In this document: piece by piece, positions 25,030-64,000 of the stretch
Layout: the number at the start of each line of letters is the position of its first letter
Numbering within the stretch: position 1 is the first letter of the stretch
Assembly (NCBI RefSeq): GCF_019649055.1
Contig: NW_026570226.1
Location: forward strand, 992,001-1,056,000
Length of the DNA stretch: 64,000 nt
Direction: 5' to 3'
Origin: Paramacrobiotus metropolitanus
Taxonomy: Eukaryota; Tardigrada; Eutardigrada; Parachela; Macrobiotidae
Translations under genes and position numbers: made by a program
The notes under the pieces: model-generated
Database searches by the model: none
What the model was told of the DNA's origin: nothing
Seen by the model: the letters and a program-made list of their open reading frames with translations, nothing else

Positions 25030-26002
25030 TGTCGACCAACCACTCCACATTAAATTATTCGCAGCGGCCAACCAGTGCGCTTCTGTTTTTGCGGGCAGAA
25101 GTGCAAGTTCAAAATTAATTGTGATTTAACATAAATGAGTTGAGAATGTCAATATACACAAACCCATGAAATTTAGAAAGGACATGTTTATTAAGGAGAT
25201 TGATTTTCGTCGGCCTCTCCTAAAAATGTTATCTTTGTGGCCATGGGACGTAAGATTACTGGATTTTTGTAGCGTGCATGGATCGGCAAGAGGAACGCAA
25301 TATCTTCCGGGCAAATAGGTTGATAGTTGATACGAATTGTAAACCAAAGCGGAACACAATTTGAGTGATCCCAAATTATCTACAGCATCGTAATTTTTTC
25401 AGATATTATTGTGCTCTCGAGTCTCGAATAAGTACACTGAAACCGAAATACTTCTATACCGAAATAAAAAAATTCAAATAATTCAAACCGAAACCGAAAT
25501 ACCTATGCCGAAGCACAAAAATTTAAATAATTCATATCAACGTTCCCTTCAACAATTTGTGCACCATGTCGGGTCCATACCACAATGTTCTCATGATCAG
25601 TACTCGTATACATTAAAGTACTTGCGAATGGCGTGAGGTACGGTTTTGTTGTACCATGGTCAGCTACGGGAAAGTGGCGGAATACTACGAATAGCAGGTG
25701 CATCACTTCTGGTCCTGTTCTGGACAATTCTGCGTATACTGCATGTGCCAATAGTCTTTTTTTGGCGACGCCGGCATCGCAGACTCGCAAGCTATGTTGC
25801 TGTTCCTTCGCCCAAGTCCAAAGAAGAAACATAAGTGTTGTCCAAAGAAGAATAAAATGTTGCCAGTTGTCTTAATCTGTTGTTGGGCTTGTGCGGTTGT
25901 GCTTAAACCGTAATGTTCAGCTTGCAGGAACGAAACCGGCGCAAGCTGCACAATTATTGTATCAGCTACGCATAACAAAAAGGCGACTGTACTGTTCGGA
26001 GT
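25030..26002. other. Intergenic region leading into degraded retroelement
   Basis: No gene accepted. Short accgaaatac repeats occur at about 25438-25505. Minus-strand open frames (25503-25978) may be decayed continuation of the recombinase but show no catalytic motif. Confidence 0.35.
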
Positions 26003-26578
26003 TTAATCACACATCGAAACAATGCTATCGTTAAGGTCACAAACCAATGAAGCCCCCCGATGTATTGCTGACAAGCTTGAGTGGATTGCAAGCAAGTGAT
26101 CAACAGTGATCGGTAGTCTTTTATTAGGTAACTCTTCGCAACTTCGTTGAACACCATTCAACGTTTGCCGTATAGAGGAATGCTTTAAACTGGGTGAATC
26201 AAAACCATACATAGTATGGTAGGAGGGTAGTGCATGCACGTAGTTAAGGATAGTGCTAAACTGCTTTGATTTAGACAAAAACGCAATGAATAAACAAATT
26301 GTTTCGACAGATGCCGGTCGCGGATTTAACCTGTGATCACGGCAAAAGCTTTCGAAACAGGCCCATTGTGAGCGACGGGTCTTAAACGAGGAAGGAGCTA
26401 AGGCACTCATCCGTAAACGATTCAATCGTTTCTCCAGTGATCGAGGATGTTCGGATAGCTAAAAACAAAATTACGAGGTAACGGATTTCCGGGGAAATCT
26501 GATCGGCGGTACTGTAAGAATCGCTGCTCATGATAGGCACCTTCGGTGATCCGACTTAGAGCATCGGCTTGCACATTA
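26003..26578 (-). pseudogene. RNase H tail and tyrosine-recombinase N-terminal domain, fragment
   Basis: On the minus strand, right after the hAT-like insertion, the frame resumes with SNVQADALSRI, the conserved linker at the end of the RNase H domain in DIRS/Ngaro-type elements. Next comes a frame with RMSALAPSSFKTRRSQWACF, FCRDHRLNPRPAS and FIAFLSKSKQFSTILNY. This is the helical core-binding domain typical of tyrosine recombinases. The frame closes at 26003, before the catalytic R...HxxR...Y set, so the enzyme is truncated or frameshifted. Confidence 0.75.
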
Positions 26579-26586
26579 CTCGTACC

Positions 26587-27282
26587 CAGGCCCGTCTCGA
26601 GACCCCTGTGCAATTTTCAAAAAACAACTCCTCCCACAGTTTTCATCGGAAAATTTTTCTGAATACACCATTGGATTCGTCGTGAAATTCTGAACAAAAC
26701 GGTTGAGGCCGATTTTTGAAATTCGCATTTCCCCCCAGACCGTTACGGCGGGCGGTCGCCAATGCGACAGACCAGTTCTTGGGGCATTCCCCCCTGGCCC
26801 CCAAGGGCAGTCAAAGACATCTTCTCGAGCCTTTTTCAGTGATAAAATTAGTATCTCAAGCGCAAATGGCTTCTCTGTTTCTGAGGGGTCAGGGGGGAAA
26901 GCCCCAAAACTTGGGTTGTGACATAGGCGACCGCCCGGGTGGACGTGCTTGGAGAGGAACGAATTTTGAAATTTGGCCTCAACCGTTTTGTTCAGGATTT
27001 TACGGTGAGTTCAGGAATATTTTCAGAAAAATATGCGATAAAAGCTGTAGGAGAAGTACATTTTTGAAAGTGCCCGGGGGAATTCCCCAGAAGTCAGGCT
27101 GTCGAATTGGGGACCGCCCGTAGTAAGGGTCTAGGGGGAAATACGAATTTCAAAAATCGGCCTCAACCGTTTTGTTCAGAATTTCACGACGAATCCAATG
27201 GTGTATTCAGAAAAATTTTCCGATGAAAACTGTAGGAGGAGTTTTTTTTTGAAAATTGCACAGGGGTCTCGCGACGGGCCTG
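26587..27282. mobile_element. hAT-like foldback element with 8-bp target duplication
   Basis: A 696-bp insertion begins CAGGCCCGTCTCGAGACCCC and ends with the near-perfect inverse (right end read outward CAGGCCCGTCGCGAGACCCC). The inverted repeats extend roughly 200 bp. CTCGTACC flanks both sides (26579-26586 and 27283-27290) as a perfect 8-bp target duplication. The CAGG start and 8-bp duplication fit the hAT superfamily. There is no transposase, so it is non-autonomous. Inside, about 170-bp segments are also repeated directly (cggcctcaaccgttttgttc-type blocks), giving a foldback structure. It sits in the RNase H region of the host retroelement. Confidence 0.9.
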
Positions 27283-27290
27283 CTCGTACC

Positions 27291-28436
27291 CGACGCATGA
27301 GTAGAGCTAAAACGGAAATTATGCCGAATGCTCACGGCAAAAACGGCTTTAAGCCACTTAAGTGCATGCAAATTTTTTGTTGTACCACGGTTTAAAAAAG
27401 CCACAGTCTGAGTATTGTCAGACAAGACGAGGACTTTATGACCGGTAAGGTGCGGTGCAAATATTAAGAGTGGCAGACAGGCAGCTATAAGCTCTAAAAA
27501 ATATTGATATTTTTCACCAATTCTGGGTGTACGAGTGGGCTCGGTAATCAGTTATTGGAAAAACCAACTGGGGGTTGTAGCGGCAACCAAGCGCCGGCAA
27601 AGTAAGTGTCGCGCAAAGCGGCCCCGAAACCGGAAAACGACGCATCTGTATATAGCGTCTTGACCGGCATTGGACACCTAATGGACACGGTACCAGTCCA
27701 TTGAGAACTGTTGAAAATTTATGCCACCAAGAAAGATCTGCGCGAACAACGTCATCGATTAAGAATTTATCGTGCGGCTGTTTGAGACTGGACATAACGT
27801 CGATGAACAACCTTGTAAAAACTCTCGCACTGTAGACTGCTTTCGAGACGTACGACATGTTGCCGATAAGCTTTTGCAAATCTTTTTTTGATATCGCTTT
27901 TGACATTCTATACATGTCCACGTCTTTTAAGAGTTCGGCTAACTTATCTGCTGGAATTTCCAGTGTGCACTTAACGGAATCTATGATGATTCTCAAAAAC
28001 TTAATTCGCTGCGATGGCCCAATCACTTTTTCTCATTTTACATTGAAACCAAGTGAGGTTAGCAGTGAAATGAGACAGTTTTTAACGGCTAAACAGGCGG
28101 CATAAGTTTGAGCAATTATCAGGAAATCATCTAAGTATACCCGTATACTATTATAGTATACTATTATAGTATACCCGCGGTATACTATAATAGTATGCAT
28201 CTAAGTATACTATTATAGTATACCCGCGACGACGCATAAAGTCGGCTATAGCACCTGAAATTTTTTGAGAAATATAAGGCGCATTAGCCAAGCCGAAGCA
28301 TAAAAAATTATCAATGTAGAAATGCTCAGCTTCGTTCGGAAATCGCCAGCGAAAGCGTTGTAACTGGCGATGCGCTGGGAAAACCGGCACCGAACGGTAG
28401 GCTGCAAGGATGTCAATAATTGAAACACCTAACGGG
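27291..28436 (-). pseudogene. DIRS-like reverse transcriptase (C-terminal part) and RNase H
   Basis: The minus-strand frame runs SIIDILAAYRSVPVFPAHRQ, RFRWRFPNEAEHFY, CFGLANAPYISQKISGAIA and reaches VYLD, the start of the RT catalytic loop, where a 70-bp palindromic insertion (28128-28197) breaks it. Downstream come RIKFLRIIIDS, KKDLQKLIGNMSYVSKAVY and an RNase H stretch with LVLSDNTQTVAFLNRG. A TGA at 28035-28033 sits where the family usually has a Trp codon. The beginning of the RT (fingers) is missing here and found inverted at 31.8 kb. Confidence 0.82.
28128..28228. repeat. AT palindrome insertion in RT active-site loop
   Basis: tatactattatagtatac-type palindromes are repeated in both orientations between two copies of catctaagtatac (28128 and 28198, 70 bp apart). 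The length is not a multiple of three, so it frameshifts the RT. Confidence 0.85.
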
Positions 28437-28544
28437 CGGCCACCTCGGGGAGGGGGCCATGTGGCAGGCGGTTCAGGAGCGCATATTTCTTACGCACATC
28501 AATTATACAATTAGCATATGACATAATTATCTTGATTTTTGTTG

Positions 28545-28995
28545 GTTGGGCGCATAAGGGCGCATATTTATAGTATACACGTTACTCTTATGTCACCTCC
28601 CTCGAGATGGCAGTAAGTTGTTAGTTGAGTTGGGCGCAGTTGGGCGCAGTTGGGCGCATATTTATAATATACACGTTACTCTTCGTGTCACCTCTCTCCG
28701 TATGGCAGTAAGTTGTTAGTTTAGTTGGGCGAGGTTGGGCGCATATTTATAACATACACCTTACTCTTAATGTCACCGCCTTCCAGATGGCACCAAGTTC
28801 TTGGTTGGGCGCAGTACGGGGTATATTTATATTAGCGGTAGTTGTTAACCACATTATTATACGATATTATACGATTTATGTCACTACCTTCCAAATGGCA
28901 ATTATTTGTAATTCAGTTGGGCGCAGTTGGGCACATATTTATAGCCTAAACCTTACTTTTTTGTCACCATCTTCCAATTGGCAGTCAATTATTGG
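28545..28995. repeat. About 100-bp tandem repeat, roughly five units
   Basis: Each unit contains ttgggcgcatatttata, then cac/gttactct, then gtcacc, then ccatatggca-like sequence and aagttgttagtt. Starts lie near 28560, 28660, 28740, 28820 and 28920, with increasing divergence. The block lies just inside the left breakpoint of the apparent inversion. Confidence 0.8.
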
Positions 28996-29388
28996 TTAGA
29001 ATGTACTATTATAACGCACAGCATAATCATATTACACTTCCATTCATTACTGTATTTTTATTTATTTTACAATACTTATTATACACAGATTATACACAGA
29101 TCCTAACTTATTGTAAAATAAAAATTTTATTAAATTTTAGTTACACCGTAGTCATGATTTTTTGAACCTTCACATCACAACAGTAAAATTATTATGATAC
29201 TAATGTACCTAATATAATAGTACAAAAATCGGGCATAATCAATTCACCATAATAATATAAAATTCATACAAATAGCATACCACTAATGAATTTAGCTAAT
29301 AATACAAAATGATACTTGTACTGGTAAAAGAATATTATCATGTTATCCAAATTCAAAGAATTTGGACCATTCAGTTCTGCTTCGCAGT

Positions 29389-30029
29389 TCAATTCCACTT
29401 TTCCACACATTTATTCCGTTTTTTCGGAGTAACTATATACAAAAATACATATTCAAATTCATATAACTTATTTGTATTTAATTTCTTACCATTCAATCGT
29501 TTGCTGCACTCAGGTTGCACTGTCGTTGTTTGCTCTTCGCTGACACCAATATCCATAGCTGAACATGGATTTTCTTCTACAAAAACAAAATAATTTCATA
29601 CTTAAAATTTATTGCGTTTTCAGTTTAAAATAATATTATACCAAGCTTCTTTTCTTCCATATAAGTTACACTGATGCTTTCTTTGCTGCGGCCTTGTAAT
29701 AACATTTATTTAACAATAGTAATATTATCTGTTCATAAATATTTATAATAAATACTAATATGTATTTAACTATATTTAATAAATATATTCATACATATAT
29801 ATCCATTCATACATATTTATAATAAGTATTAAAATGTAGAACTTCAACTTACTTCAATATTACTGTAAGCCTGCTTCAGAATGACACGATATTGCTTATT
29901 CATAACTGAAAAATTGTTAACTCCAATCAGTCCACTTTGATGGGCAGCTGCTGAAGGCCCAGATAATTGTTGTTGAATTTGATTATATGCCATGACATCA
30001 ACGACTCCACTATCGTCCGAAATTTGCAC
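29389..30029 (-). CDS. RPA-like OB-fold protein, last four exons (5' end not found)
   Basis: The first exon seen, 30029 to 29853 (or to a donor about 10 bp earlier), reads VQISDDSGVVDVMAYNQIQQ, then GLIGVNNFSVMNKQYRV. This matches the single-strand-DNA-binding OB fold of replication protein A: SGxI/V...A.N...L.....G....NNF....NKQY. Later exons end at 29642, span 29576-29490, and span 29432-29389, with consistent phases. The last encodes a PKKRNK basic run, a possible nuclear signal, before TGA. Consistent splicing argues for a real gene and not chance ORFs. The exon 1 donor is ambiguous between GAA|gtaagt and TACA|gtaata; only the latter keeps the phase. It may be a host gene, or cargo of a retroelement or Helitron. 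Confidence 0.5.
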
Positions 30030-31766
30030 CTGTACAGAGATATTTTTAATATACATTAAAAATTTTTTTCACTAAAATTAAAATCACATTTAACGCTTGA
30101 AAACAAATGCAATTGCAGACAGTTTCGGCTCAGTCAGACAATTTCCGCAAAAATCTTTGTTACTTAAATACAACAATCATACGGATCGTTACACCCACTT
30201 TTTTCTTCAAAATACTTTTATCGCATCCACAATCATCCATAACACCATCATCCATAACACATAAACATCAAATATCATATTTATTCCATAATTTATCCAC
30301 ATTCTCAGCATAAAACCATTCAACCAATACTAAATTTGCTATACACCAAACCATACGGAACACTACATCCACCTGATTCTTCAAATTTATTTTATCAACT
30401 TCAATATCGACACACCATGACTCTATAATGCCACATAAATTTTCTGTATTTAGCTTTACCATTATTTCGAACGGTTACACTATGCGAGTCAATATTTCTA
30501 ACACTATGTCACGTTCACAGTCACTCAAGCGGGCTAATTGAAATGAGTACAGTGACCTAAACTGCAATATCTAATATGCGGTGTAGCACGTTAAAACTGA
30601 TTAAATACGCTCCATAACCTCACTCCATAATTTTCTACACATTGCACGCAATATCTTAATCCACACTTATTAACTCTATCCATTGTATCAAACCACTCCG
30701 TATCACTTTACAAAATATTGAATTTCTATAAATGCCCTAATTTTTAAGTCAACCTTTAATTCCGCAATACATAAATCATCCATTACAAAAATATACACCA
30801 ACAAATTTTCGCACGCATTTTACTCGGACTAACAAATTTCAGTCTATTAACCCTAGTTTAATTCTCTTACTAAATTCTAAAAATTAATAATTTAAATTAC
30901 CGTAATACCGATGCAAATAGCATTTCAGTTCAACCGCTACCACAATAGCTAATTCTTCTTAAACACCACACCAGTAAAATATAAATTCAACACACAAACA
31001 TATATTATCACACTTCCATATCAACTTCAACAAACTAACACAAAACATTGACAAAATACCACTCATTAACACACATACATCAACACACCATCTGCCTCTC
31101 ATACATATACATAAACATATCTCCAAGTAATAAATAATATTATTCCAGTACAAATTCAACTAAAGTTAAATCTCTTAACACAATATACCACTTTTCGTAT
31201 ATAGAATCATTTTAACCATATCAAACCAATACCTAGTATTATCGTATGCTAATCAACATACACAAATAATTTCTTACCAATCAAATGTTTCCTAGGCAAA
31301 AATCCACCGAAATCCTTCTCACACCACTTTCCACGCAATGAAGATCAATTCACCCTCTCCACCCTATTAAAACAAAATTTACAATTCAAACAATTAAAAA
31401 ATAAAACATTTAAAAAATACCATTAAACAATTACCAAATTTATTCCACCAGAAATCCCAAAACTCGCGACGCAACCATAAATCAAAACTCTATTCACACA
31501 ACAAACTTCTCATTCCAGCAATCTCACCAATTGAATTCTCACCACACTCCGCGTCTCCTTTATATACCCAAAGCTCAACTGCGCTCGAAAAACTACCAAT
31601 CCTCAACAAATACCAACCCCTCCATTCAAAACCATCCAAGCCAAAATCATTTCGTCAGAGAACTTCAAAAGCGGCCTCATTTATATCGAAATACCCAACT
31701 CAGAATTAGTCCTTGACAGGACACATATGGCCAAACTACAGCTTCTACACAAAAGACTACTCTAGA
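30030..31766. other. AT-rich, G-poor region
   Basis: The plus strand is strikingly poor in G and rich in A and C for more than 1.5 kb (runs such as caacacacaaacatat). Missing 5' exons of the RPA-like gene may lie here; minus-strand frames at 30268-30462 and 30959-31159 are candidates without proof. Confidence 0.5.
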
Positions 31767-32165
31767 AGCGTCCGCTTTTTCGTGGGGATGCCGGCAATCA
31801 ACGCGCCGGCACAATCCGCTATAAGTTTACCTGCTGCTATACCGTAGTTAATGATATTGACAGTGTCCCATCAGCAGATTGTCGAAATTATTCTTCGGCT
31901 TTGAGTGAGACTGCCAAGCCGATGCTGGACAAACTGTTCAGAGCAGAGCTTGATAGTGGGAAAATATCTCGTCAATTAATCAAACCCAAACGCATTAACG
32001 CAATTAGAGCTGTACCGAAGAAAGGCGAAAATAGCCTGCGTCCAATCACAGACTGTAGCCGCCCTGTCGACAACTCTTTAAATAATTATGTTGAAGCTGA
32101 ATGCTTTACTTTCGATACCGTCGATAAAGCTGTATCGCTTAGTCATAGCAATTGCTATTTTCCGG
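31767..32165 (+). pseudogene. N-terminal part of DIRS-like reverse transcriptase, inverted fragment
   Basis: The plus-strand frame reads KPMLDKLFRAELDSGKISRQ, KRINAIRAVPKKGENSLRPI, TDCSRPVDNSLNNYV and FTFDTVDKAVSLSHSNCYF, then loses similarity at about 32165. These are the fingers and N-terminal palm of a DIRS-type RT. It ends just where the minus-strand RT at 28.43 kb resumes with GVSIIDILAAYR. The two pieces therefore look like one RT split by an inversion. Confidence 0.75.
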
Positions 32166-32200
32166 CAGGCGATGGGGGTTGCCATCGCGACAGAGGGTGT

Positions 32201-33034
32201 TTAGCACCCGAGACCATATGGGCTCTGCTGTGTAGGTTTTGTATTTTGTGTTTTCCGATCAACATCGAGATCACAACGACGCGATTTCGCATGAAAATAT
32301 TTATCGTTTAGGGCAGACCGTTCATGTGAATCAGAAAGACTTAGACCATCATGAGTGGCCATTTCACGAAATTCTTCGTCAAATTTCAAGACTGCCTTAT
32401 CGTCGAAATCACGCCGACGTATGGCCAGAAATTCTAAATATTGCAAATATTCAGTAAGCGACTGATGGTATTTGCCAGAAACAGTCCGTGCAAGTTTCAC
32501 GGCTGTTTTCAAACCGTATACCATAAACTCGTCGTACGATAAATCCGTTGCAGTGGGTCGGCTGCGTTTGCCGCTATGCAAGGTGACCTTTGGAGCTTGC
32601 TTATGTGGTAACGGCAATTTACGGGCGTTCTCGGCATTGTTGTTACGGGAGCGCAGCAGTTGGCGGAGATCGGAAACGGCAAGCGGTGCTCGGTGATTGA
32701 TGAAGATCTGAATCTCGTTGCGATCGGCAGGAAGCTTGATGAAATCCAGATCTTTCGGATAGGACTTACTTTGATGAAGGCGGAGAAGTTTGTCCAGGTC
32801 GGCTAATGGTCCGGCGGCAGCTATTCCTGCTGGAGGTCCAACAGGATGGTCAGTCGGTGCGATGGCGCCGTTGGCATCCACAGCGCCTTCCATGCGTGAT
32901 GGCGGGATGTCGTTGTGGTTATACAAACGTGCCAACAAGACTTTCCTGACGCCGGTATCATCCAGACCAGCATCACGGCATGCCTGCTTGAGCTGTGGAA
33001 CCTTCAACTTCTTCAGTTCGTTCTTCGAGACCAT
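32201..33034 (-). CDS. SAP-domain gag-like ORF of the DIRS-like element, 278 aa
   Basis: One uninterrupted minus-strand frame. It starts MVSKNELKKLKVPQLKQACR, and residues about 5-40 (LKQACRDAGLDDTGVRKVLL) form a SAP DNA-binding helix pair. The middle is Ala/Pro-rich. The second half is helical and charged (KYHQSLTEYLQYLEFL, KFDEEFREMA), as in the nucleocapsid-like first ORF of tyrosine-recombinase retroelements. An in-frame ATG 36 bp upstream would extend it by 12 residues; the SAP-proximal ATG was preferred. Order and strand match the RT and recombinase to the left. It is the best-preserved part of the element. Confidence 0.7.
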   Translation of the reverse strand: MVSKNELKKLKVPQLKQACRDAGLDDTGVRKVLLARLYNHNDIPPSRMEGAVDANGAIAPTDHPVGPPAGIAAAGPLADLDKLLRLHQSKSYPKDLDFIKLPADRNEIQIFINHRAPLAVSDLRQLLRSRNNNAENARKLPLPHKQAPKVTLHSGKRSRPTATDLSYDEFMVYGLKTAVKLARTVSGKYHQSLTEYLQYLEFLAIRRRDFDDKAVLKFDEEFREMATHDGLSLSDSHERSALNDKYFHAKSRRCDLDVDRKTQNTKPTQQSPYGLGC

Positions 33035-33514
33035 TATTAGACCGTTGGCGGTTATTATTAAAAAGGTCACAGAACGTTCTAAAGGCTAACGATGTAAAAG
33101 CTAAGTATCTGCTAGTAGCAGGCTAATTTGCTAAATTGCTAACAAAAATTTTGCTAACTGCGAAGGTAGGAGCAATGATTATGCACTGTGTGCAGTGAGT
33201 TGCTTATATACCTCATACAGACACTGACCGCTGGCCAATCTCCAAGCGGGCGGGCTTAGGTTGCGCCGCTAGCCAATAATGGACAGATTCCCTTTTCCGG
33301 GGGAATCTTGTCTATTAACCCATGAATGCATGTGTTTAACGTCAATACAGTTTTTTTTAACGTGAAAAAACCTATACAGTGGATAAGTCAGCCGCTATAT
33401 GCATGTGTACAGTGTACAACTCTCTCCCAGTGAATTTTGATTCGGCTAGTTGGCCATGCAGTACACAATGACAACACGCCTGCGCAGATTCACACTAATT
33501 AAAATGATTGAATT
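33035..33514. other. Retroelement flank
   Basis: Upstream of the gag ORF. May hold the element's terminal repeat or promoter; no repeat pair was demonstrated. Confidence 0.35.
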
Positions 33515-42644: not shown

Positions 42645-45600
42645 ATGGCATCCATTCATTCCGAAAAAATGCTTAGGGTTCAGATTGAAAGTTTGGTGGC
42701 AGGAATCGATGGCGCTGAAACCATTATGACTAGCGAGAGCGCCACTGTGGGAAAGTGAGTTTCTGAGGATGCGTTTGTTTTTCCATTGTAACATTGTTTA
42801 TATTCCACTTCGTATTGTTTACGTGTAGGTGATAGGTAATTTGTGATTTTTCGCTTGAGTATGTTTGTCATCAGTTGATATTATTCTACTGCTGGGGTGC
42901 TGGAAATGCTAAAGGTTTCTTTAAGCAATCGTACGGAAGGTGCAGAATCCAACAATACTGGTATATTTGCAGTCTTATAGCGGGATTCATTATTGAACGG
43001 AGGCTTCGTACGGATATCGTTTCTGAGTTCTGTGTTCAAGGTCAGATTAGTATCATTTTATTTTATGTTTTTGTCATATTTCCTTGTGCACGACATAATT
43101 CCAGGTGATTTAATCACTACGATTGTTAATTATATGATCAATGCTGCCAATTGCTGCAACTTTAAACACGGATTGCCAGTTTCCTACTTGTTGTTTTTAT
43201 TTATGGAAGTCCTCCTTGTTTATTTAGATCCGAAGGGAAACGTTTTGAAGAATCATCGGACAGTGGGCTCGTATGCAATTCGAGATGGTGATAAACTTTT
43301 CCTAGCAAAACGTATGAGCATTTTTTGTTAATTTTTATAAACATTAGTTTGCCCGCCTGCAGCCATGCGTGCCATGATTGCCATCCAATAAAAGGTGTTT
43401 ATTTTTTGTAGGAGAAACAAGAATTTTGTTGGGCTGCAAGAACTGGTTTGCGCTGGCTGCTGTGGCCTGTTGTGCATCGCTGATTGGGTTTGCGGTGATG
43501 ATCTACCTTTATGCACGATCTGGAGCAGTACCTGTGGACTTTGTGGTGGTCATCGATGCTGGCTCAACGCACACTGATTTGTATGTTTATCAGTGGGATG
43601 GAATGAAAATCCGAGGGACAGGATTGGTGAAGCAGAACGCTCATACTCGCTGCGAAAGTGAGTAGCTTCTTTGTTTACCGTATGTCGAAGCAGATCGAAA
43701 CTTTATCGCCAGTTAATTTTACCAAGAGACACACTTGTCTCTTTAAAATGTGAAAATGTTTCCAATGTTGCAAGCATAATTTGTTGTAAAGGCGACGACC
43801 ACTGCAATGCTTTTACATGAAGTCATTATTTAATTATCAGTTTCGTTATTTTAAGGCTTAATTTTTAGAAATTCGTTGCAGATCATGGATTGGAAAATTA
43901 TGTCGATCCGCGAATGGCTGCCAGAAGTTTGGAGACATGTATGGGTTTCGCAAAAGATAGCATTCCTCGGCCATCTTGGGATAAAACCGAAATTTATTTG
44001 GGAGCCACAGCTGGCATGAGACTGCTTGAGTAAGTTCAGGAGTTCAGGGCGAGCACTAAAACCAGCGGTGCGATTTTGTCAACTCGATAAGCAAATGTAT
44101 GCCGATTTCTTTTAGAGCGACGAATGCCACTATGGCTGCATCAATAATGGATGCCATAAGAACGGAAGTTAATGGAAATTATCCTTTTAAATACTCGGCA
44201 GAACATGTCAGAATAATCTCTGGAATCGAGGAAGGGATCTATGGATGGATAACCGTTAACTACCTTGCCAAAACGCTGTTATTTGTACGCGAAGAATAGC
44301 CTCTAGCGTAATTGTACTTGCAGATTTCTTTTACTTGATGCTGATGTCTTTTTCGCCGTTTCACCACCTTTTAAGGGGCTTGCAGATACGCCGTAGTTGA
44401 TTAATTATTGACTTTTATTCTTCTGCTTTGATAGGACCACATTGCACCGAAGTCGTCCGTGGGAGCCCTTGATCTTGGCGGAGCTTCAGCGCAGATTACA
44501 TTTGATTCCGAAGTCAACTACACTCAAACGGCAACGTTGTTTCAGGAAACTTATGATCTGTATTCGCATAGTTTCCTCTGCTATGGTCTGCGTGAAGCCG
44601 AACGCCAGTTCAAGGCGTTGTTGGTGCAAGAACAAAATCAAAGTGTCATTTTGAATCCCTGTGCTCCAACGGGAAATACCACTGTTGAGCCCATGAATTC
44701 TGTCTTTGGACATTATTGCACCAGCGGCTTCCATTCGGATGTGAAATCAGATAGCCTCAGCTTCGTTGGCACCAGTAATTCAACGGAATGTTCGGCTATG
44801 GTTGGAAAATTGTTCAACAAAACGTATTGTCCCTACTCGGGCTTTGATCGGTGTTCGTTCAATGGCGTGTACGAAGCACCTCTAACTGGAAAGTTTATGG
44901 TACTGGGCTTGCATACTTGCAAGACTCATTCCCTGAAACGCAAGCTGACTGCTGTTGTTGTTGTAGGCATTTTCTGGATTCTACTTTGTGATGGAATTTT
45001 TTAATCTAACCAATGTTAATAGAAGTGGCGGAGTCGTTCCTCTTCCGCTCTATAGGGAAGTGATTAAAGATTTCTGCCTAAAGAATTATTCGGAGGTGAG
45101 TTCTGTTGATCGAGTTTGGCATTTTGTTGGTTTGGTTATCATGGTTTTGACTGTGGCGTTTTTCTGGCAGTAACTATCAAGGCACATTCGCGTGGAGCTA
45201 CTTAGAAATCATTAATAAAAAATTGATAATTGACTATCTTACTGGTTTGATACAGACATTTTACGTCTTTATTTTGATTACATCGAGCTTATTAATTTAC
45301 TCCACAGATTAATATTCTGAATGCGAGTGATCCACATTCGCCGTTCATTACCCAGTATTGCTTTGACGCACATTTCGTGGACAATATCTTGACATTGGGA
45401 TATGGATTTAATGATACGACATTCGAGCAGATCCGATTTGTACCCGATGTATGTATTCAGTAGTGAAATTGAGTATCATAAAGAAAATTATGTTTATGCG
45501 TTCAATTTGATTAGATCGATGGCATGGCGCTTGGATGGACGTTAGGATTAGCTTTGAATTCGACTAATGCGCGAGACAATGAGCCACCGGAAAATCTCGT

Positions 45601-45742
45601 GTCGACGGCAGTCTTTATATCATTGATGGTCGTGTTTACCGTTCTACTGATTTTTGCTATGGTGTTTTGTCTGCGAGCGGTGAAAGCAGCGCGTCGCTAT
45701 CGTGATTACGAGTCAATTAGCTCGACCTACGGTGCTATCTGA
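42645..45742 (+). CDS. Ecto-NTPDase (CD39-like) with ubiquitin-like N-terminal extension, 10 exons, 595 aa
   Basis: Exons 42645-42754, 42973-43040, 43228-43311, 43412-43657, 43882-44029, 44116-44284, 44435-44899, 44967-45095, 45308-45448 and 45515-45742 form one frame. From residue 100: TM1 (FALAAVACCASLIGFAVMIY), ACR1 (VVIDAGSTHTDLYVY), ACR2 (GATAGMRLL), ACR3 (EEGIYGWITVNYL), ACR4 (GALDLGGASAQITF), a cysteine-rich C-terminal lobe with FSGFYFVMEF and GMALGWTLGL, TM2 (about 551-573) and a short tail. This is an intact two-membrane-segment enzyme that hydrolyses extracellular nucleotides. Residues 1-88 look like a ubiquitin fold: LRVQIES, a helix (IAGFIIERRL), then DPKGNVLKNHRTV and YAIRDGDKLFLAK. 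No ATG precedes TM1 in its exon, which supports joining. An AATAAA at 43387 in intron 3 leaves a two-gene reading open. Confidence 0.85.
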
Positions 45743-46480: not shown

Positions 46481-48524
46481 TTAGTAGCCCCCGCGACTGC
46501 CTCCAGACTGTACCGCATAATTCGTTCCAGAACTGCCACTTGAAAGGCCACTGCTGGAGCTATATCCTGCTCCGGACTGACCGCTGCTGGCACTGGGTTG
46601 GCTGTATCCGTTCGAGCCCGAAAATCCTGTCTGACCGAAGCTGGATCCCAAGCCACCAGTTGCACCAGACATCTGACTACTGGCGCTGTATCCGGATCCA
46701 TTAGAACTACCACCGCCGTACGGCTGCATGCCACCGCCGAGACCGCTGCTACCGGAAAATGATCCTCCGTTGCCTCCCATTCCGGAGTACATTCCACCGG
46801 AGCTGCCGAAACCGGATAATCCCGAGTTGCCGGAGTTGTATGACCCAGATGACCCGGCACCGTTGCCGGAGTAGCCACTACCGCTGAACCCTTGCTGCTG
46901 TCCTCCTGATCCATAACCTTGACTCATACCGGAAAAACCGGAAGGTTGACCTCCACCGCTATATCCTTGCGAGGATCCCGAATCGCCACCAGAAAAGCCA
47001 GAGCCGCTCATTCCACTACCGTACTGACTGCCGCCGCTCATGCCGGAACTGTACTGGCCCCCGTTACCACTGCCTCCGAATCCCGACATCCCTCCGAAAC
47101 TGCCAAACGCATTGCTACCACCGTTGCTGTAGCCATTCCCGCCGCTGAGCTGCGAGGCCATGCCGGAACCGGATAATCCCCCGAAGCCCCCACCGACGCC
47201 GCCCAAACCGCCCGAGCTGTAGCCGTTGCTCATGCCGCTTCCGGAATACGATCCACTTCCCAGGCCACTGGAGCCGCCGCCGTTGTACGAACTCATGCCG
47301 GAACCACCGCCGTTCTGATACGATCCACTGCCGCCGCTGAATCCCTGGCTGCCACCATTGTAACCCTGGCTGCCACCGCTGAAACCATTGCTCATACCCT
47401 GGCTGCCACCGTTATAGCCGCCGCTCATGCCTTGACTGCCTCCGTAACCGCTGCTCATGCCTTGGCTACCACCGTATCCCGACTGTCCACCACCGAAGCC
47501 GCTTTGCATCCCGCCGAAACCCGTCTGACTGCTGCCACCGTATCCACCGCCACTCAAACCGTTCTGACCGTTACTGTATCCCGCTGAGCCGCCGCTTAAT
47601 CCTGATTGACCTCCGAAACCGCCTCCCATGCCGGAACTGTATGAACCACCGGACAATCCTCCTCCCAGTTGGCTGCTGCCGTAACCCGCACTGCTGCCCA
47701 GTCCAGATCCAGACTGGCCGCCATATTGACCACCGCTGCTCAAGCCACTCTGACCACCGTAAGATCCCGAGCTTAAACCGCTTTGACCGTTAGAGTATGA
47801 GCCGGAAGAGCCCATGCCGCCGTACGAACCAGACGCTCCGAGGCCGCTGCTTCCACTGGCGTAAAGTGAGCTGGATAATCCTCCCGTGCTGCCGGAGGAA
47901 TAACCCGAGGATGCGGGCTGCGATCCGCTGCCGTATGACGAGCCACTGGAGCTTCCATAATTAGATCCAGTTCCGCTTGATCCTGTAACCGTCATTAAAC
48001 TAGTTAACTCAATTCCCAGCTAAACTAATACTCAAAGTGTGACAAACATTGGATAAAAAACCAAAAAAACTTGAGGAAAAGCACGCTTTTAATTCTATTA
48101 GCGAAAATTCGGGAAAATCTTTCAGAAAAATTTGAGTAACCGGATCAGCATAATCGGTGTAACCACTAGCTAAAGATCCGGACAAAATTGTTGCAAAGCT
48201 CTGTAACTGATACGAGTACTAACTTTAATTAATATTTTATTATCCTATACAACATGTGTAGCTACATAAATTAATGGAGATATCCTTCCTGTCTTTGGTT
48301 GGTGACCTCCGGCTATATTGATAAGCAGTGTACGTACACGTTAGCGGGGTCAGCTGCTTACCTGACGAATAAGCTTGTCTCACGCGGCCATTCGCCGGCG
48401 CGGCGACTTGGGATGAGACGGATGACCCGGCTGCCACTGCATCTGATACATTTTGGCCGGTAGCGATGGTCAGGACGAATGCGGAAATTCCCAGCAGGAT
48501 AACACCATTCTTCCACTGCGACAT
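46481..48524 (-). CDS. Secreted Gly/Ser-rich low-complexity protein, 2 exons, 554 aa
   Basis: Exon 1 (48524-48362) encodes the signal peptide KNGVILLGISAFVLTIATG and a short Ala/Ser spacer with GRVRQAYSS. A phase-1 intron leads to one 1.5-kb exon (47982-46481) composed almost only of Gly, Ser, Tyr, Gln, Asn and Met in short motifs (GSSGSYGG, SGGSQG, GMSSGYGG, SGFGG). It ends GSRGGY. Cysteine, Lys and acidic residues are nearly absent. Composition resembles silk, cuticle or adhesive proteins and phase-separating domains. Extracellular structural role inferred. The neighbour upstream has the same exon architecture. The Gly/Ser exon is notably GC-rich compared with its surroundings. Confidence 0.8.
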
Positions 48525-50513: not shown

Positions 50514-53500
50514 TTATCGATAAGAATTTCCTCTGTTCAAAGTTGCATAGGTCACTGGCTGATTAATGTTCTGCTGCTGTTGTCCGGTATTGACAGGCTG
50601 TACACCACCAGTGTTTGCGGTGCCGATATTCTGCAGTCCTCCACTAGCTTGTTGTCCAAATCCTCCGCCAATGCCTTGACTCACCGGGATACCGCCTCCC
50701 AAAGAACCAGTATTATATCCTCCAACGTTTCCCACATTTTGTGCTTGATTCACCCCGGTCTGCGGCTGCTGAGTGACCTGATTCACTCCGCCCAACCCAA
50801 ATTGACCACCGGTCTGTTGAGCATTGCCAAACGCCGGATTGATCTGTTGACCCGGTTGGCCACCCGTCGCTTGCTGCGCACCGAACTGCGAACCCAAAGG
50901 AAATTGTGCGGATGGCTGCTGCATCTGTTGATTTGACGTGGCTTGCTGTCCAGCCCCAGCCGAACCGACTTGTGTATTAATTCCCTGGTTACTCGTGGCA
51001 ATGGTGTTTGACACCGGCACACCAGGCTGTACCGTCGGTGTTATGACCGGAAACGGGTTGGACGATGTGGTAGCTGGTTGACCTGTGGTGGTGGGTCGCG
51101 TTACGCCTAATTGCTCTTGAATGCTTTGTGCCAGTGATCCCAGTCCACCGAATCCCGAAAAGGGTGTGGTTGTGCCCGGATTCTGCACCAGCACATTGGG
51201 CGCGGTGATGGCAGTGGTAGGATTTTGCCCTAAATTTGCCGGTGGGATAGGAGTCTGAATGGAAGCCGCGGTATTCTGTCCACCTTGACCGGCGGATAAA
51301 ATAACCGGCGGAGCGGATGCCGGAATCTGTACCGGTTGGTTGTTCACTGGCTGTCCGCCGGATGCCTGGCCGTAGCCGCCCTGGAGACCGGGAACGCTGA
51401 TGCTTGACTGCTGGACTTGCTGGTTTTGAATTTGGTTGGGTGTAGCGGGAATGGCGGGAACTTGATTGTTTGGCTGGTTTTGGACACCTGAAGGGAACTG
51501 CTGTTGCTGATTTATTCCCTGTTGACCAACTGATCCGATATTGGTGTTCTGTGGGAAACTTCCCGCGCCTGGATTGATATTATTTTGGTTGCCATAGCCA
51601 GATTGCTGTGACACTCCCGAATTTACGTTGCCGACATTGTTGCCGAATCCTAGATTCGGGTTTTGTTGGTTTTGAGGCTGACCGATTTGTTGATTCTGGT
51701 TTGGTACTCCCTGAAAGCCGAACCCAGATTGTTGCTGCTGTTGCACAGGTTGTTGACTATTGACCACTCCACCAAATCCCGTTTGGCCTCCTTGGATAGT
51801 GTTACCCCCTTGGTTCGCAAATTGATTTTGGACTTGCTGATTAGGCACACCACCACTGTAACTGCTGCTCCCGTAGTTTCCTTGGCTGTTTGTTTGCCCG
51901 GGCTGCTGTCCAGTGCCCAGCTGCTGCTGTTGACCTTGCGGGGCGGCACTGCCGAACGGTCCCGTTCCATACTGTTTTTGTTGCTGATTTTGCGCTTGAC
52001 TGTTAACGTTGGTATTTTGTACCGGCTGTAGACCTTGGAATCCACCACCAGCACTAATGCCGCCGCCGCCGCCCAGGAAAGCCGTATTGGCCTGGGCCGT
52101 TGGACCGCTGTAGCCGGCGGCATTCTGCGTGTTACCGCTCTGAGCATTAAATCCGCTGTTCGGCTGCTGATTATTGTTCACGTTCTGGTTATTGACGGCA
52201 GGTTGAACGACTTGCTGCATGCTGGCTCCGCCGCCGTACCCCGTGGTGGGTGGCGGCAGAATACCTCCGGGACCGGACTGCTGAGGACTGGCGTAGTACC
52301 CCACCGGCAGAGGAAAGCCGCTGGTCATCTGGTTGTACGTATTGGAATTAATGGGCAACGGCGTTTGTAAGTTCATGGGTGGCGTCGGTGCGGCGGTGAA
52401 TCCCGTTAACGGCTGGGGCGGGAACGTGGGAGCGGCGGTGAATCCGGTTGGAAGGGGCGTGGCGTATGTTGGCGGGAAATTGTTATTAGGGATGCCACCG
52501 GCACCACCACTTCCGTAACCACCCTGCTGCTGCTGATTCTGTATTAAGGGTTGCTGAGGCTGCTGAATCGGCTGCTGGATCGGCTGCTGACCAGCGCCGC
52601 CGCCTCCATACCCACCCTGTTGATTCTGCGCCGGCAACGGTTGTTGCGGTTGCTGGATTTGCTGTTGTCCGATATTATTGCCTCCGTAACCGCCTTGTTG
52701 ATTTTGCAACAGGGGTTGTTGCGGTTGCTGGATCGGCTGCTGACCAATATTACCAACTCCGTAACCACCCTGCTGATTTTGCGGTAACGGCTGCTGCGGC
52801 TGCTGGATAGGTTGTTGCTGCACCGGTTGTTGCATCGGTGCTTGCTGGATGCCGACTGTACCTCCGCTTCCGTATGAACTGGCAGGTCTCGATGGTCCCA
52901 GGTACTGCTGCTGATTGGTCACTCCCACGTTATTTTGCATTTGCTGGTTAAAATTGGATCCAAAGTTGTTGAGTTGATTCTGCTGTGCTGGATTCTGTTG
53001 AGCGCCGGAAAACTGGTTGCCGCCGATTCCGGATATTCCACCGGTTATTTGATTCTGATTAGATGAAAATTGATTACCAGTATTAAAGTTTGTGTTTCCT
53101 CCTGCGAACGTGTTGGGCTGCTGGATGATTCCTCCCGCGTTGACACCTTGAGACGGCTGCTGCCCGGAAAATCCGAAACTGTTAATTCCCGTTGGCTGTG
53201 TCTGGACTCCGACCCCTCCGTATGCACCACCAGCTGGAAGGACCGCGAAGTTTTGGTTTACGGGAGCGGGTGCCGGTTGCTGGGGTACTTGTCCGGGTAG
53301 GTTGGACGGGCCGCTTTGAGCCGCCTGTCCGGCACTGTATCCAGACTGCTGACCCGGAAGACTAGCGGATATAGCGGCGCCCGCTGCCGGTGCTGCGACC
53401 CCGGCGGTCGCCACGGCCGGTACGCTGGACGCTTGACTGGGAACGGTCAGTTGTTTATTGGCCGTGTTGATAACGGCCGCCAGTAGAGATGCCAGCGTGG

Positions 53501-55202
53501 CATTGTCCGCCAGGAGGTCAGATAAATGGAATGTTGGTGTCGATGGTGAAGAGGTCGACGGTGCTGTGGTGGTGGATTCCTGAGAGGCGACCGGGTCCGT
53601 TTTGACACGCAGTGTTTCAGAAATGGGAGTAATCACAGGTGGGAACATTGTCGGAATGGGAATGCCGCTTAATACACCGGTTCCTGTGTGCCCATAAATC
53701 ACAATGGTTTCAAGAGGACAAATATTTCTTCACATCAATTTAAAATTAAGTCCATTGTGTTTACAAACTTCCTACAAGAACTCATACGAACCTTATATGC
53801 AAAATCCCGTTTCGTGAAACGAAAGTCTACAGTCATATTAGTACTCTGTATGTGCTCTGTACATGTATACTGGAAACACGCAAGAAACACTACCAACCTT
53901 ATCTTTTCCAACATGCACATGCTTCAAAGAACGTATATTATAAATGCTTTGTCAGAAATCTATTTTCATAATTAAAACAAACATTTAAAGATTTAATACT
54001 GTTCTGCTTACATAAAGATTTATTTCTATGCAATGGCAGAAATCTGGAATTTTTAACTGTCAAGCTACAAGCCCATCCAACAATTCTTTGACCGCTGTAA
54101 GCGGGAATTTAAAGAAACGTGGGCTTGAGCCATTTAATGTGCTTCGACACGTCACGCCACATGGGTCTGCGTATAAGCAACAAATCTGCATGTGTTGCAG
54201 TTACTGTATCTGTGATATATATTATAATATGTTTGGCATTATTTATTGCCATCATAATTGATAATAATTTTATGCTTTTGTTAGTTTTGTAACAGTATTA
54301 TCTTTGCTTTGCAATACAATATCCATACGGCGGCTAGTGTACGAAATTTTTTCGAGAGAGAGGGAATCATTGTGGCCGACTGGCCCGCGCGGTCTCCGGA
54401 TCTAAACGTGATAGAAAATTTATGGACTGTGATGAAACAATATATCACCCTTTTCCAGCCACAGAACCTGGTGCAGTTGCGTCATCTGATAAAAGAAGCC
54501 TGGGTGATGTCTGCCACAACAGAATTCTGCCAGAATCTTTACAAATCTATTCCAGTGAGATATGAGAAGGTCTTCCACGCGGGTGGCGCTCGAACTGAGT
54601 ACTGATATTTCGTTCCATATTTCGTTTTATGGATGGTAGTTCATAAACCGATCTGTTTCTTTTGTAATTACTAATAATTTAACTGTGATAATTCTAACTG
54701 CGATCTGTTTGGTTTTGTTGATTAACCTGATAATTTTAACTGTGATGATGGCTTTATCGGTGATTAATTGTGATCTAATTTATTATTATTGGTTAAATAT
54801 TGATAAATATATCTGCCACTACACTACGATGCGTATTTGCATTACTGTGCGCGATTTATATGCGCTGCGCTTACAGCGGTCAAAGAATTGTTGGATGGGC
54901 TTGTATATATGTACACCTTTCCTGAGCAGCGGATGCCACGCATGTTTGTTACTCTATAATCTGCATGGTAACATAATAATACAATAATTTTTATGTTACA
55001 AAAATAATGAATCTAGACTGCTCTTACCGTTAAGGTTAATTCCTTGAAGTAATTTTGGAGTATTAGTACTAGAAGAAGAAGTGGACGTCGATGCGGTACC
55101 AGTAGACGCATGAGTACTATTTTGAGCGAAGGCAACATTCCCAAAGGTTATGCATAGTATCACAGTGTTCATCCATGTCGATAGCGGCAATCTTAAAATC
55201 AT
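50514..55202 (-). CDS. Secreted Gln/Asn/Gly-rich low-complexity protein, 2 exons, about 1114 aa
   Basis: Exon 1 (55202-55028) starts MILRLPLSTWMNTVILCITF, a signal peptide ending near NVAFA, followed by a Ser/Thr run. A phase-1 intron of 1.3 kb, carrying a Tc1/mariner remnant, leads to a single 3.2-kb exon (53683-50514). Residues after the junction (about 59-160) form a more ordered part with LSDLLADNATLASLLAAVIN. The rest is dominated by Gln, Asn, Gly and Pro, with about four copies of a unit of about 28 residues (QQPIQQPQQPL..NQQGGYGG, genomic about 52490-52810). It ends TYATLNRGNSYR. Almost no cysteine. A prion-like or matrix-forming extracellular protein is inferred; no domain family recognised. 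Confidence 0.8.
54068..54903 (+). mobile_element. Deleted Tc1/mariner element with inverted repeats
   Basis: Perfect 36-bp inverted repeats (left start CAAGCCCATCCAACAATTCT, right end its inverse) bound an 836-bp element flanked by TA on both sides. It lies in the intron of the Gln/Asn-rich gene, on the opposite strand. It encodes only the C-terminal part of a transposase. Confidence 0.9.
54309..54605 (+). pseudogene. Tc1/mariner transposase C-terminal fragment
   Basis: The frame has NFFEREGIIVADWPARSPDL followed by NVIENLW, the hallmark around the last catalytic acidic residue of Tc1-type DDE transposases, and ends near the right inverted repeat. The upstream motif that is normally QDNA reads QYNI, so the second catalytic Asp is lost. 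The N-terminal DNA-binding domain and first Asp are deleted. It cannot be active. Confidence 0.88.
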
Positions 55203-61200: not shown

Positions 61201-62400
61201 TAAGCCGCAATTTGCCATGGCTATCGATATGAATTTGACAGTTTTTATTGTACTTGATGCCCGGTGTCAATCAGGCGTTTGTGAACAGCAGTCTATAACG
61301 TCGGCCATGGAGATGTTTTTCACGATTATATGTCGCCCAGCTGGCAGTTATTGCTGAGTGCTTTAAAAGCATTTGGCTCGTCCGTGGTGTGTGTTATTCA
61401 CAAGAATGTGATCGAGCCGCACGATTCCATTTCGGAGTTAGGAGTATTAGCGTTATTATATGCCATCTATATCTGGCATCGGTGCCATATGATTGCCGCC
61501 ATTGGATGTGGGCGGGCAGTAACAAAGCCAATCACCAGCTAGACGAAATAAGCTACTTGTAATCGGCTTAAAACTCCAATTGTCGCAGCTGGAACACACC
61601 ACCCGTTCGCATGGCGCTACTGCGGGCATCATACAGTAAAATTTGTTAATCCCACTCTAACTGCTAACCATACTAGCGATGCGCAACTTTATTTTAAATA
61701 ACAATTAATAAAAATTTTGTAATACAATACCGAACACAACTTTAAAGGGGAGCTGCGTAATGCACGATACGGCTCAATTTGCGGTTACCATACACCGCAT
61801 CAAGCGGCACGAGCGGAAATACGACAATCTTAACGGTTTAGCGGCGTTGATCGTACAGCGGCAGCGATCGCTTACTTAACCGGCGGTCTCCTACACACAG
61901 CGCGTACAGTAGTTGGTTTGAATAAACATTGTACAGTAGCGCTTTTATTGGAACTGCTAGCGATGCGGTGGTGTCAGTATACAGACAACCGTGGCTCGCA
62001 CCCTTATTGGCTCCATGCAAAGCCTTAGCTGAAGCAAATAGGCCAGTACGCGTATTCTTTACAACTTTAAGCACTCCACCCCTATCGTTAGCGATAATGA
62101 TGCCGTCCAAGTTAATTTAGACTCTTGTGGGCCGAAACTGAAAGAAGGAAGGCATTGACAAACGACTGAATCGCAGATCATACACACGTATATTGCTCAG
62201 GATACTTTTCCTTACCCAGGTCATTCTCAACCCCACCGTCAATGATCTTCACTTGACAGTTGTCGATTCCCTTTTCTCCTTTTCTCGTACATATGTGACT
62301 GGGTTACTAATCTGTCTTGTGGTCAAATGGCCGTATACACGGATAAAGGTCACTTGAAACATTAATTTTGTGTTAGTGCCAGCCGCACTGCTGTACCATC
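55203..62400. other. 7.2-kb gene-poor region upstream of Six3/6
   Basis: No convincing multi-exon gene on either strand; AT-rich with scattered short open frames. One small frame, 55766-55906 (plus, MMKITLYKII... then HLSMLLLSFVTQSVAD), has a hydrophobic stretch and AATAAA about 80 bp downstream, so a tiny secreted protein is possible but unproven. Other frames (57258-57530, 58594-58878, 61330-61542) have no family resemblance. The region is the likely cis-regulatory landscape of the homeobox gene. Confidence 0.4.
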
Positions 62401-63104
62401 ATGGCCTTCACACCAACATCCTTCCGTGGCCTCCCACCATTTCCCTTTCATAACCAAATGCACATGCAGGCCATGGCCGCGGCGGCGGCGGCCCATGCGG
62501 CCAATTCGGGAATGATTCCTACGGTCGCACCCGGCCTTGGTCTTGGTTTGTCCGTACAACAGATCGCCAAAGTGTGTGAAGCGTTGGAGGAGAGTAATGA
62601 TATTGAACGGCTAGCTCGCTTCCTCTGGACACTGCCATTGTATAACAACGCCAGCCCTCAGGCCATGGAAGTGCGGAAACACGAATCGGTCCTCCGTGCT
62701 CAAGCCATTGTTCTCTTTTACAGCGGAGATTACCGGAATCTCTATTATTTGCTGGAGAATCACCGCTTCAGTAAGGAACATCATCAGAAATTGCAGAGTA
62801 TGTGGATGGAAGCGCATTATCTGGATGCGGAAAAGTTGCGCGGACGACCATTAGGCCCGGTCGATAAATACCGGGTGAGGAAGAAGTATCCGCTGCCGAA
62901 AACTATCTGGGACGGCGAACAGAAGACGCACTGTTTTAAGGAGCGGACAAGAAATTTATTACGGGAATGGTATCTACAGGATCCCTATCCTAATCCACAG
63001 AAGAAAAAGGAACTGGCCCATGCCACCGGCTTGACACCCACCCAAGTGGGCAACTGGTTTAAGAACCGCAGACAGCGCGACAGAGCGGCCGCAGCCAAAA
63101 ACAA
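62401..63104 (+). CDS. Six3/6: Six3/6 (Optix) homeobox transcription factor, first exon
   Basis: Starts [16 protein letters not shown] with a poly-Ala stretch. The SIX domain (about residues 51-160) shows [28 protein letters not shown] and [20 protein letters not shown]. The homeodomain (about 166-227) has [17 protein letters not shown] and [20 protein letters not shown]. The [15 protein letters not shown] string marks the Six3/6 subfamily, not Six1/2 or Six4/5; members pattern anterior head and eye. The frame reaches TAA at 63106, but AA|gtaagt at 63104/63105 is a perfect donor placed just after RAAAAKN, where vertebrate SIX3 also has its intron. The coding region therefore probably continues in an exon not identified here. 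Confidence 0.95.
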
Positions 63105-64000
63105 GTAAGTGATCCCGTTGCACATCCAAACTGCTTCCGCAACCATTACTCGGTAGTGCTACTCGGTTCCTGTTGCTACTCGGTAGTGAAAATTTGACAT
63201 ACAGTTTTAATCAAGTACAGAAATTCTGAAATATAATAACAATTAACAACCCATGTGCTCTTAAGGTAATTTAGTCGGTGCTATAAATTTTTCGTGGTTT
63301 TGATTACACTCATTATTGACTGCGAAACAGTTTTATATGGCATTTACGAGTATCATGACAATAAGCACGTATCAAAACAGGGAAACTAAAAAAAACAGGA
63401 TAATAGAAGAAATTTATTACTGAAGTACCGCAAAATTGTAAATCATGGAAGTATCTGTCAATGTGCTATAAATTTAACATTATGGTGGGTATTAAACTTA
63501 CATATTCCAAATCAGATGGGTACGTTTTTTAGCAAGAACAAGGTTTTATTGCATGGCTTCAATCAAAACGCAGAACGAAAATACATTATAATCTACAAAT
63601 GCGTATCTTATTTGCGTTTTTGTAAGATACCCAATATATATTTTCGGTATACAATAGGTAACAGTAAAATTTTAGTTACTTTGGTATGGAGTGCATGGGT
63701 GCATTTTTGCAAAGTTATATTTGAGTAAGGGCACAAAACTCTCGATCGGCGACTATAAAGCTCAATACATTTAATCAATGCAGAAAGTGATCTATATGCA
63801 GACTGCAGTGGTTAATTTTCGAGCTTATCGAATACGGAGAAAACAAACAAGTAGTCTGTATTTGGCCCGGAACTATTTTCTTTTGCTTGGCATGTTTGTT
63901 GCGTGAATATCGTTGAAGAGATCATTTCCGCGATGTCGTTAGTGATGCGGGGATTTTTGATGGGGTCGAGACAAATTGGATCTCGCTAACGTTTACATAG
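63105..64000. other. Probable Six3/6 intron, running off the window
   Basis: AT-rich sequence after the donor. No acceptor followed by a Six3-like tail could be recognised before the right edge. A plus-strand frame at 63516-63728 shows no family resemblance. Confidence 0.4.

What the first reader, a model, noticed from the sequence alone, without database searches (positions are those of the whole stretch)
42645..45742. Ubiquitin-like domain fused to the cytosolic end of a CD39-type NTPDase
Three upstream exons with compatible phases add about 88 residues with a ubiquitin-fold pattern ahead of TM1. Known ecto-NTPDases have only a short cytosolic tail. The TM1 exon has no upstream ATG, which favours a real fusion. 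It could couple nucleotide-hydrolysing membrane enzymes to trafficking or ubiquitin-receptor systems.
Basis: partly seen in the sequence, partly recalled or inferred. Interest (0 to 1): 0.75.

Follow-up and report, generated by a model that had tools for sequence, protein, structure and literature searches.

The report
Tardigrade CD39-like enzyme with ubiquitin-like tail
A tardigrade gene for a cell-surface enzyme that breaks down ATP outside the cell appears to begin with extra exons for a small ubiquitin-like module on the inside of the membrane; the enzyme is clear, the fusion is plausible but unproven.

Summary
The enzyme is real. Seven exons (43412-45742, + strand) encode a complete CD39-type ecto-NTPDase: GDA1_CD39 E 1.1e-87, two TM segments, 12 N-glycosylation sequons. 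By assembly statistics the genome is the tardigrade Paramacrobiotus sp. TYO or one very near it.

The three upstream exons (42645-42754, 42973-43040, 43228-43311) are open, phase-compatible and coding-like. The TM1 exon has no ATG before TM1. A paralogue (contig C30) also enters its TM1 exon through a phase-1 intron, so an upstream coding exon is expected.

The ubiquitin-like claim is only partly borne out. Pfam's two best hits are DUF2604 (2e-4) and ubiquitin (2.9e-3), both below curated cut-offs. Nearly all the signal lies in exon 3. Exons 1-2 alone hit nothing, and shuffling them with exon 3 fixed reached the observed profile score in 20 of 300 trials. I had no transcript, relative or structure. 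In-frame ATGs at 43134 and 43203 also permit a shorter, non-ubiquitin tail. AATAAA at 43387 is uninformative: another lies inside intron 8 of this gene.

Best reading: one fused gene (about 0.5), a new variant of a known enzyme. I saw no such module at the five other CD39-family loci found in this genome.

The parts
42645..42754 (+). exon 1: start codon (alternative in-frame ATG at 42669) and putative strands beta1-beta2 of a ubiquitin-like domain
   Evidence: open, donor GTGAGT, phase 2 end; best codon score in the model's frame; no family hit for exons 1-2 alone
42973..43040 (+). exon 2: putative helix and beta3; a weaker donor after 43007 gives a variant 11 residues shorter
   Evidence: its end adds 3.4 bits to the DUF2604 match; variant
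43228..43311 (+). exon 3: the ubiquitin-like signature (beta4-beta5); phase-1 end
   Evidence: Pfam ubiquitin 4.7e-4 for the exon 3 piece; profile match to residues 62-86
43134..43311 (+). rival first exon: open frame from ATG 43134 (or 43203) straight into exon 3
   Evidence: hits ubiquitin only through the exon 3 part
43387..43392 (+). AATAAA in intron 3, not discriminating
43412..43657 (+). exon 4: cytosolic linker, TM1, first nucleotidase motif (DAGST)
43882..44029 (+). exon 5 of the NTPDase
44116..44284 (+). exon 6 of the NTPDase
44435..44899 (+). exon 7 of the NTPDase (LDLGGAS motif)
44967..45095 (+). exon 8 of the NTPDase
45308..45448 (+). exon 9 of the NTPDase
45515..45742 (+). exon 10 of the NTPDase: last motif (GWTLG), TM2, short cytosolic end, stop

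Best explanation
The gene is a CD39-type (NTPDase1/2-like) ecto-nucleotidase whose transcript begins with three exons for a cytosolic ubiquitin-like domain (about residues 9-88), joined through a phase-1 intron just before TM1. Shown: an intact nucleotidase gene; open, phase-compatible, coding-like upstream exons; a ubiquitin-like signature in exon 3; a phase-1 boundary before TM1 in a paralogue. Inferred: that exon 3 is spliced to exon 4 in mRNA; that exons 1-2 complete the fold; the topology (domain and both ends in the cytosol, enzyme outside). Most likely it works as a non-conjugated docking module on the inner end of TM1 that controls ER exit, surface level or endocytosis of the ATP-hydrolysing enzyme. 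This step is inference only.
For: Model and phases; GDA1_CD39 1.1e-87 with DUF2604 2e-4 and ubiquitin 2.9e-3 at the N-terminus; profile of 34 ubiquitin-like segments of this genome 11.8 bits against a best of 5.3 in 200 shuffles; 0 of 600 random regions reach it at either of two settings; codon score best in the model's frame for all three upstream exons; no ATG before TM1 in exon 4; phase-1 intron at about the same place in the C30 paralogue.
Against: No RNA, relative or structure. Pfam scores are below curated cut-offs. The signal is nearly all in exon 3; 20 of 300 with exons 1-2 shuffled do as well; 11 of 1000 full shuffles equal the plain alignment to ubiquitin; hhalign probability only 3.7%. 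Other starts exist. A 2% share of random regions reach its coding score.
Confidence: 0.5

Rival explanations
1. The upstream exons are spliced to the NTPDase, but the N-terminus is an ordinary long cytosolic tail, like that of the C30 paralogue, and the ubiquitin-like look of exon 3 is chance or a decayed relic.
For: Exons 1-2 carry no detectable similarity; C30 has a predicted tail of about 103 residues without a Pfam match.
Against: The two best Pfam hits out of 24,736 models are both ubiquitin-like (that DUF2604 belongs there is recalled). No chain from 600 random regions scores as high. The order and spacing of predicted core residues fit by eye.
Confidence: 0.2
2. The NTPDase starts at ATG 43203 or 43134, in one exon that runs into exon 3, giving a tail of about 40-60 residues that is not a ubiquitin fold; the upstream exons are an alternative or a false model.
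For: Both ATGs are in frame with exon 3 without a stop. Alternative first exons at this point of human CD39 are recalled.
Against: The stretch before 43228 looks like a polypyrimidine tract and acceptor, and the ubiquitin-like signature in exon 3 would then be a coincidence or relic.
Confidence: 0.15
3. Two transcripts: a short free ubiquitin-like protein ending in intron 3, and an NTPDase started from another first exon.
For: Read-through of exon 3 reaches a stop six residues after LAK, near the natural end of such a domain, and AATAAA lies 76 bases after exon 3.
Against: The hexamer is common (57 on this strand of the window) and also lies in intron 8. A stop soon after a donor is expected in an AT-rich intron. 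There is no Gly-Gly.
Confidence: 0.13

Closest known systems
CD39 / ecto-NTPDase 1 and 2 (GDA1_CD39, PF01150)
   Same: Whole catalytic part, two TM segments, conserved motif strings
   Different: About 88 extra residues before TM1 with a ubiquitin-like signature; human CD39 has a short cytosolic tail (recalled)
C30 paralogue in the same genome (L004)
   Same: CD39-like; phase-1 intron just before the TM1 exon; long predicted cytosolic N-terminus
   Different: Its tail is charged and low-complexity by eye, with no Pfam match
Membrane-anchored ubiquitin-like proteins (TMUB1/2, HERPUD1)
   Same: A ubiquitin-like domain on a membrane protein; named in passages of PMC12765900
   Different: They are factors of ER degradation, not ecto-enzymes; no sequence relation was tested
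DUF2604 (PF10790)
   Same: Best family hit for the N-terminus, 2e-4, residues 42-87
   Different: Below the curated cut-off; only the last half of the domain aligns

Membership tests
CD39-type ecto-NTPDase | GDA1_CD39 domain over the curated cut-off | tested here: met
   294.9 bits against 24.9
CD39-type ecto-NTPDase | Two TM segments flanking a glycosylated ectodomain | tested here: met
   Hydrophobic windows at 98-123 and 545-580; 12 sequons, all between them
CD39-type ecto-NTPDase | Conserved nucleotidase motifs (apyrase-conserved regions; names recalled) | tested here: met
   DAGST 136, GATAGMR 210, EEGIYGW 257, LDLGGAS 287, GWTLG 527
CD39-type ecto-NTPDase | Nucleotide hydrolysis outside the cell | not testable with these tools
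   needs an enzyme assay
Ubiquitin-like domain | Match over a curated family cut-off | tested here: not met
   DUF2604 22.1 of 25 bits, ubiquitin 17.8 of 25.4 bits
Ubiquitin-like domain | Similarity above chance over the whole domain | tested here: inconclusive
   Exon 3 yes; exons 1-2 no hit, 20 of 300 shuffles as good
Ubiquitin-like domain | Beta-grasp fold | not tested
Conjugated ubiquitin-like modifier | C-terminal Gly-Gly exposed for conjugation | tested here: not met
   The domain runs on as LAKRETRILLG into TM1
UBL-NTPDase fusion | One transcript joins both parts | not testable with these tools
   No RNA data; splice sites and phases permit it

The most novel reading that the evidence does not exclude
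A lineage-specific fusion puts a non-conjugating ubiquitin-like domain on the cytosolic end of an ecto-ATPase, through a phase-1 intron slot before TM1 where this family can swap N-termini, and so ties extracellular ATP clearance to an intracellular sorting or quality-control receptor.
Probability: 0.4. Interest if true: 0.6.

Novelty: new variant of a known kind. Interest (0 to 1): 0.4.

Why it matters
If real, the cell could control an ecto-nucleotidase from inside through a built-in docking domain. It would also suggest that the 5' end of CD39-type genes is an evolutionary slot for adding cytosolic modules, and it would give a natural construct for asking what the inner tail of these enzymes does.

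Tried and rejected
Paralogues of the upstream exons were sought in the own genome: only the three exons themselves came back at E up to 10. DUF2604 in the own genome gave one sub-threshold hit, on C83, and not this locus. A viral-contig scan with the exon 7 protein and a prokaryote-contig scan with residues 1-151 confirmed no relative. A UBL-like ORF piece upstream of the C30 paralogue (8.6 bits, E 0.29) was read and set aside as chance.

Operon or trans-splicing was considered. The main text of PMC5531438 holds none of 'trans-splic', 'spliced leader', 'operon' (term counts); a search for tardigrade + trans-splicing gave nine papers, of which I saw the listing only. I disfavour it because exon 4 has no start before TM1. 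The same paper says that a few tardigrade genes were misannotated by fusion with a neighbour (passage): a general caution against models like this one.

A lipocalin/FABP gene, fetched to check the organism, matched animal fatty-acid-binding proteins among the 60 rows shown of 238 and did not help. A shorter exon 2 (donor after 43007) scores higher on UBL profiles but has a weak donor and would remove the modelled beta3; it is kept as a possible variant. The coding-score control is weak: its regions include real genes, and 60 of the 192 regions with a chain (60 of 3000 in all) reach the model's score. A search on ENTPD1 first exons listed two papers, not opened.

Full report
WHERE IT IS. The window is G000:C6:992001-1056000 in a genome of 169,799,020 bases and 533 contigs; contig C1 is 4,484,719 bases. 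The published Paramacrobiotus sp. TYO assembly has 170,483,395 bases, 684 scaffolds and a longest scaffold of 4,484,941 (passages of PMC8277472). I take the organism to be that tardigrade or one very near it; this is inference from assembly statistics, and no tardigrade marker was tested with success.

THE ENZYME. Ten exons give 595 residues, ending at the stop at 45742. Residues 130-542 match GDA1_CD39 at 1.1e-87. The best solved relatives are NTPDase1 (3zx3, 8e-80) and NTPDase2 (4cd3, 1.4e-73). Two hydrophobic segments, five conserved motif strings and 12 N-glycosylation sequons between the segments fit an intact ecto-enzyme with both ends in the cytosol. Basic residues flank both segments on the inner side (by eye).

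THE UPSTREAM EXONS. Exons 42645-42754, 42973-43040 and 43228-43311 are open, have GT-AG borders and end in phase 1, as exon 4 requires. A codon score trained on 4853 codons from this genome is best in the model's frame for each of the three, though exon 2 scores close to zero (0.3 bits). The same test fails for one undoubted exon, 44967-45095. Joined, they score 0.19 bits per codon; 0.87% of 3000 samples of non-coding DNA do as well, but those samples come from the stretches used as background. Of the nine well-formed splice chains in this region, the best by coding score are a 3'-shortened twin of this model (19.3 bits) and then this model (16.9). Of 3000 random regions, 192 have any such chain and 60 reach 16.9 bits, real genes included.

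IS IT UBIQUITIN-LIKE? The 98-residue N-terminus hits DUF2604 (2e-4) and ubiquitin (2.9e-3), below curated cut-offs, and no other family at E up to 10. A profile of 34 ubiquitin-like segments of the same genome (35 fetched; one dropped for an internal stop) gives 11.8 bits, against a best of 5.3 in 200 shuffles. The best spliced chain of the region scores higher than any from 600 random regions at each of two donor settings. Among 2363 ORF pieces of the window, the one with exon 3 is the best match (E 0.015; next 0.73).

Against this: the aligned stretch is only residues 62-86. The exon 3 piece alone hits ubiquitin at 4.7e-4, while exons 1-2 alone hit nothing. The global profile score of 26.2 is reached by 20 of 300 sequences with only exons 1-2 shuffled (by 0 of 300 with everything shuffled). 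A plain global alignment to ubiquitin is equalled by 11 of 1000 shuffles. hhalign with the single sequence gives P 0.0037 and probability 3.7%, score 16.4 against a best of 15.1 in 100 shuffles. Matches to solved structures are weak, the best being designed ubiquitin variants at 0.067. A whole-genome scan with the ubiquitin model listed 69 matches and not this exon. The end of exon 2 adds 3.4 bits to DUF2604 (19.1 to 22.5), the only family-level support outside exon 3. RTVGSYAI aligns with RTLSDYNI of ubiquitin, Val70 is Ala, and there is no Gly-Gly. So it is not a conjugated modifier, and the usual binding patch is not clearly kept.

IS IT ONE GENE? Exon 4 has no ATG before TM1, so something upstream must supply the start. 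In my model the C30 paralogue enters its TM1 exon by a phase-1 intron about 13 residues before TM1 (here about 10) and has two upstream coding exons. The junction is thus a normal place for coding exons to join. But one search lists nine candidate first exons with an ATG and a phase-1 donor between 40.9 and 43.35 kb; four of them start at 43134 or 43203 and run into exon 3. Alternative first exons of human CD39 are recalled, not tested. AATAAA at 43387 does not argue for a separate gene: it occurs 57 times on this strand of the window and once in intron 8 of this gene.

UNIQUENESS. Searches found five other places with CD39-family matches (C30, C157, C41, C10, C224). I read the first-motif exon and 700 bases upstream at all five and saw no such module; only the C30 N-terminus was also put to Pfam. 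The UBL profile over 4180 ORF pieces of these five loci and the window gave one hit below E 0.1, this one; an exon-split module could be missed. Literature searches, listings only, found nothing on such a fusion: NTPDase + ubiquitin-like domain; ubiquitin-like + ectonucleoside triphosphate diphosphohydrolase + cytoplasmic tail; tardigrade + apyrase; GDA1_CD39 + ubiquitin; tardigrade + ectonucleoside (one paper, one table passage read). Other tardigrade genomes were not available.

MECHANISM. Most likely the domain sits on the inner end of TM1 as a docking module for sorting, quality control or regulation of the ecto-enzyme. Leads, not tests: RanBPM is listed as binding CD39 and, by the title of the cited paper, modulates its activity (table entry and reference in PMC5493780; the paper itself is not held). 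Membrane proteins with ubiquitin-like domains act in ER degradation (passages of PMC12765900).

VERDICT. A known enzyme, probably with real extra cytosolic exons, and a ubiquitin-like identity supported for about the last third of the domain. The fusion as stated is about as likely as not (0.5).

Noticed in passing
G000 contigs C3, C63, C83, C158 and others: The genome has many ubiquitin-like ORFs: 69 matches to PF00240 at E up to 0.1, many single-copy and divergent, in clusters on C3, C63, C83 and C158. This looks like a lineage expansion of ubiquitin-like proteins.
   Followed up: partly
L006 (G000:C10:1969000-1978900), about 2289-3330, minus strand: A truncated near-copy of the C30 NTPDase (TM1 exon and one later exon only), with its upstream intron apparently missing; probably a pseudogene.
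   Followed up: partly
L004 (G000:C30:377500-387400), minus strand, coding-oriented about 4892-5534: A CD39-like paralogue with a predicted cytosolic N-terminus of about 103 charged, low-complexity residues.
   Followed up: partly
window 46481-48019 and 50514-53729, minus strand: Two long low-complexity ORFs (512 aa Gly/Ser-rich, 1071 aa Gln/Gly-rich) beside the NTPDase.
   Followed up: no
window 62377-63105, + strand: A SIX-type homeobox gene: SIX1_SD 5.6e-45 and Homeodomain 1.3e-14.
   Followed up: no
window 9765-11743, + strand; 6806-7171, - strand: Exons of the exocyst subunit Sec5 (4.6e-39 and 1.7e-5) and a BAR-domain exon (3.2e-16).
   Followed up: no
window 25500-33100: ORFs that by eye resemble a recombinase and a reverse transcriptase of a retroelement (three tested, no Pfam hit at E up to 0.01), and a SAP-domain ORF at 32204-33085, minus strand (6.1e-12).
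   Followed up: no
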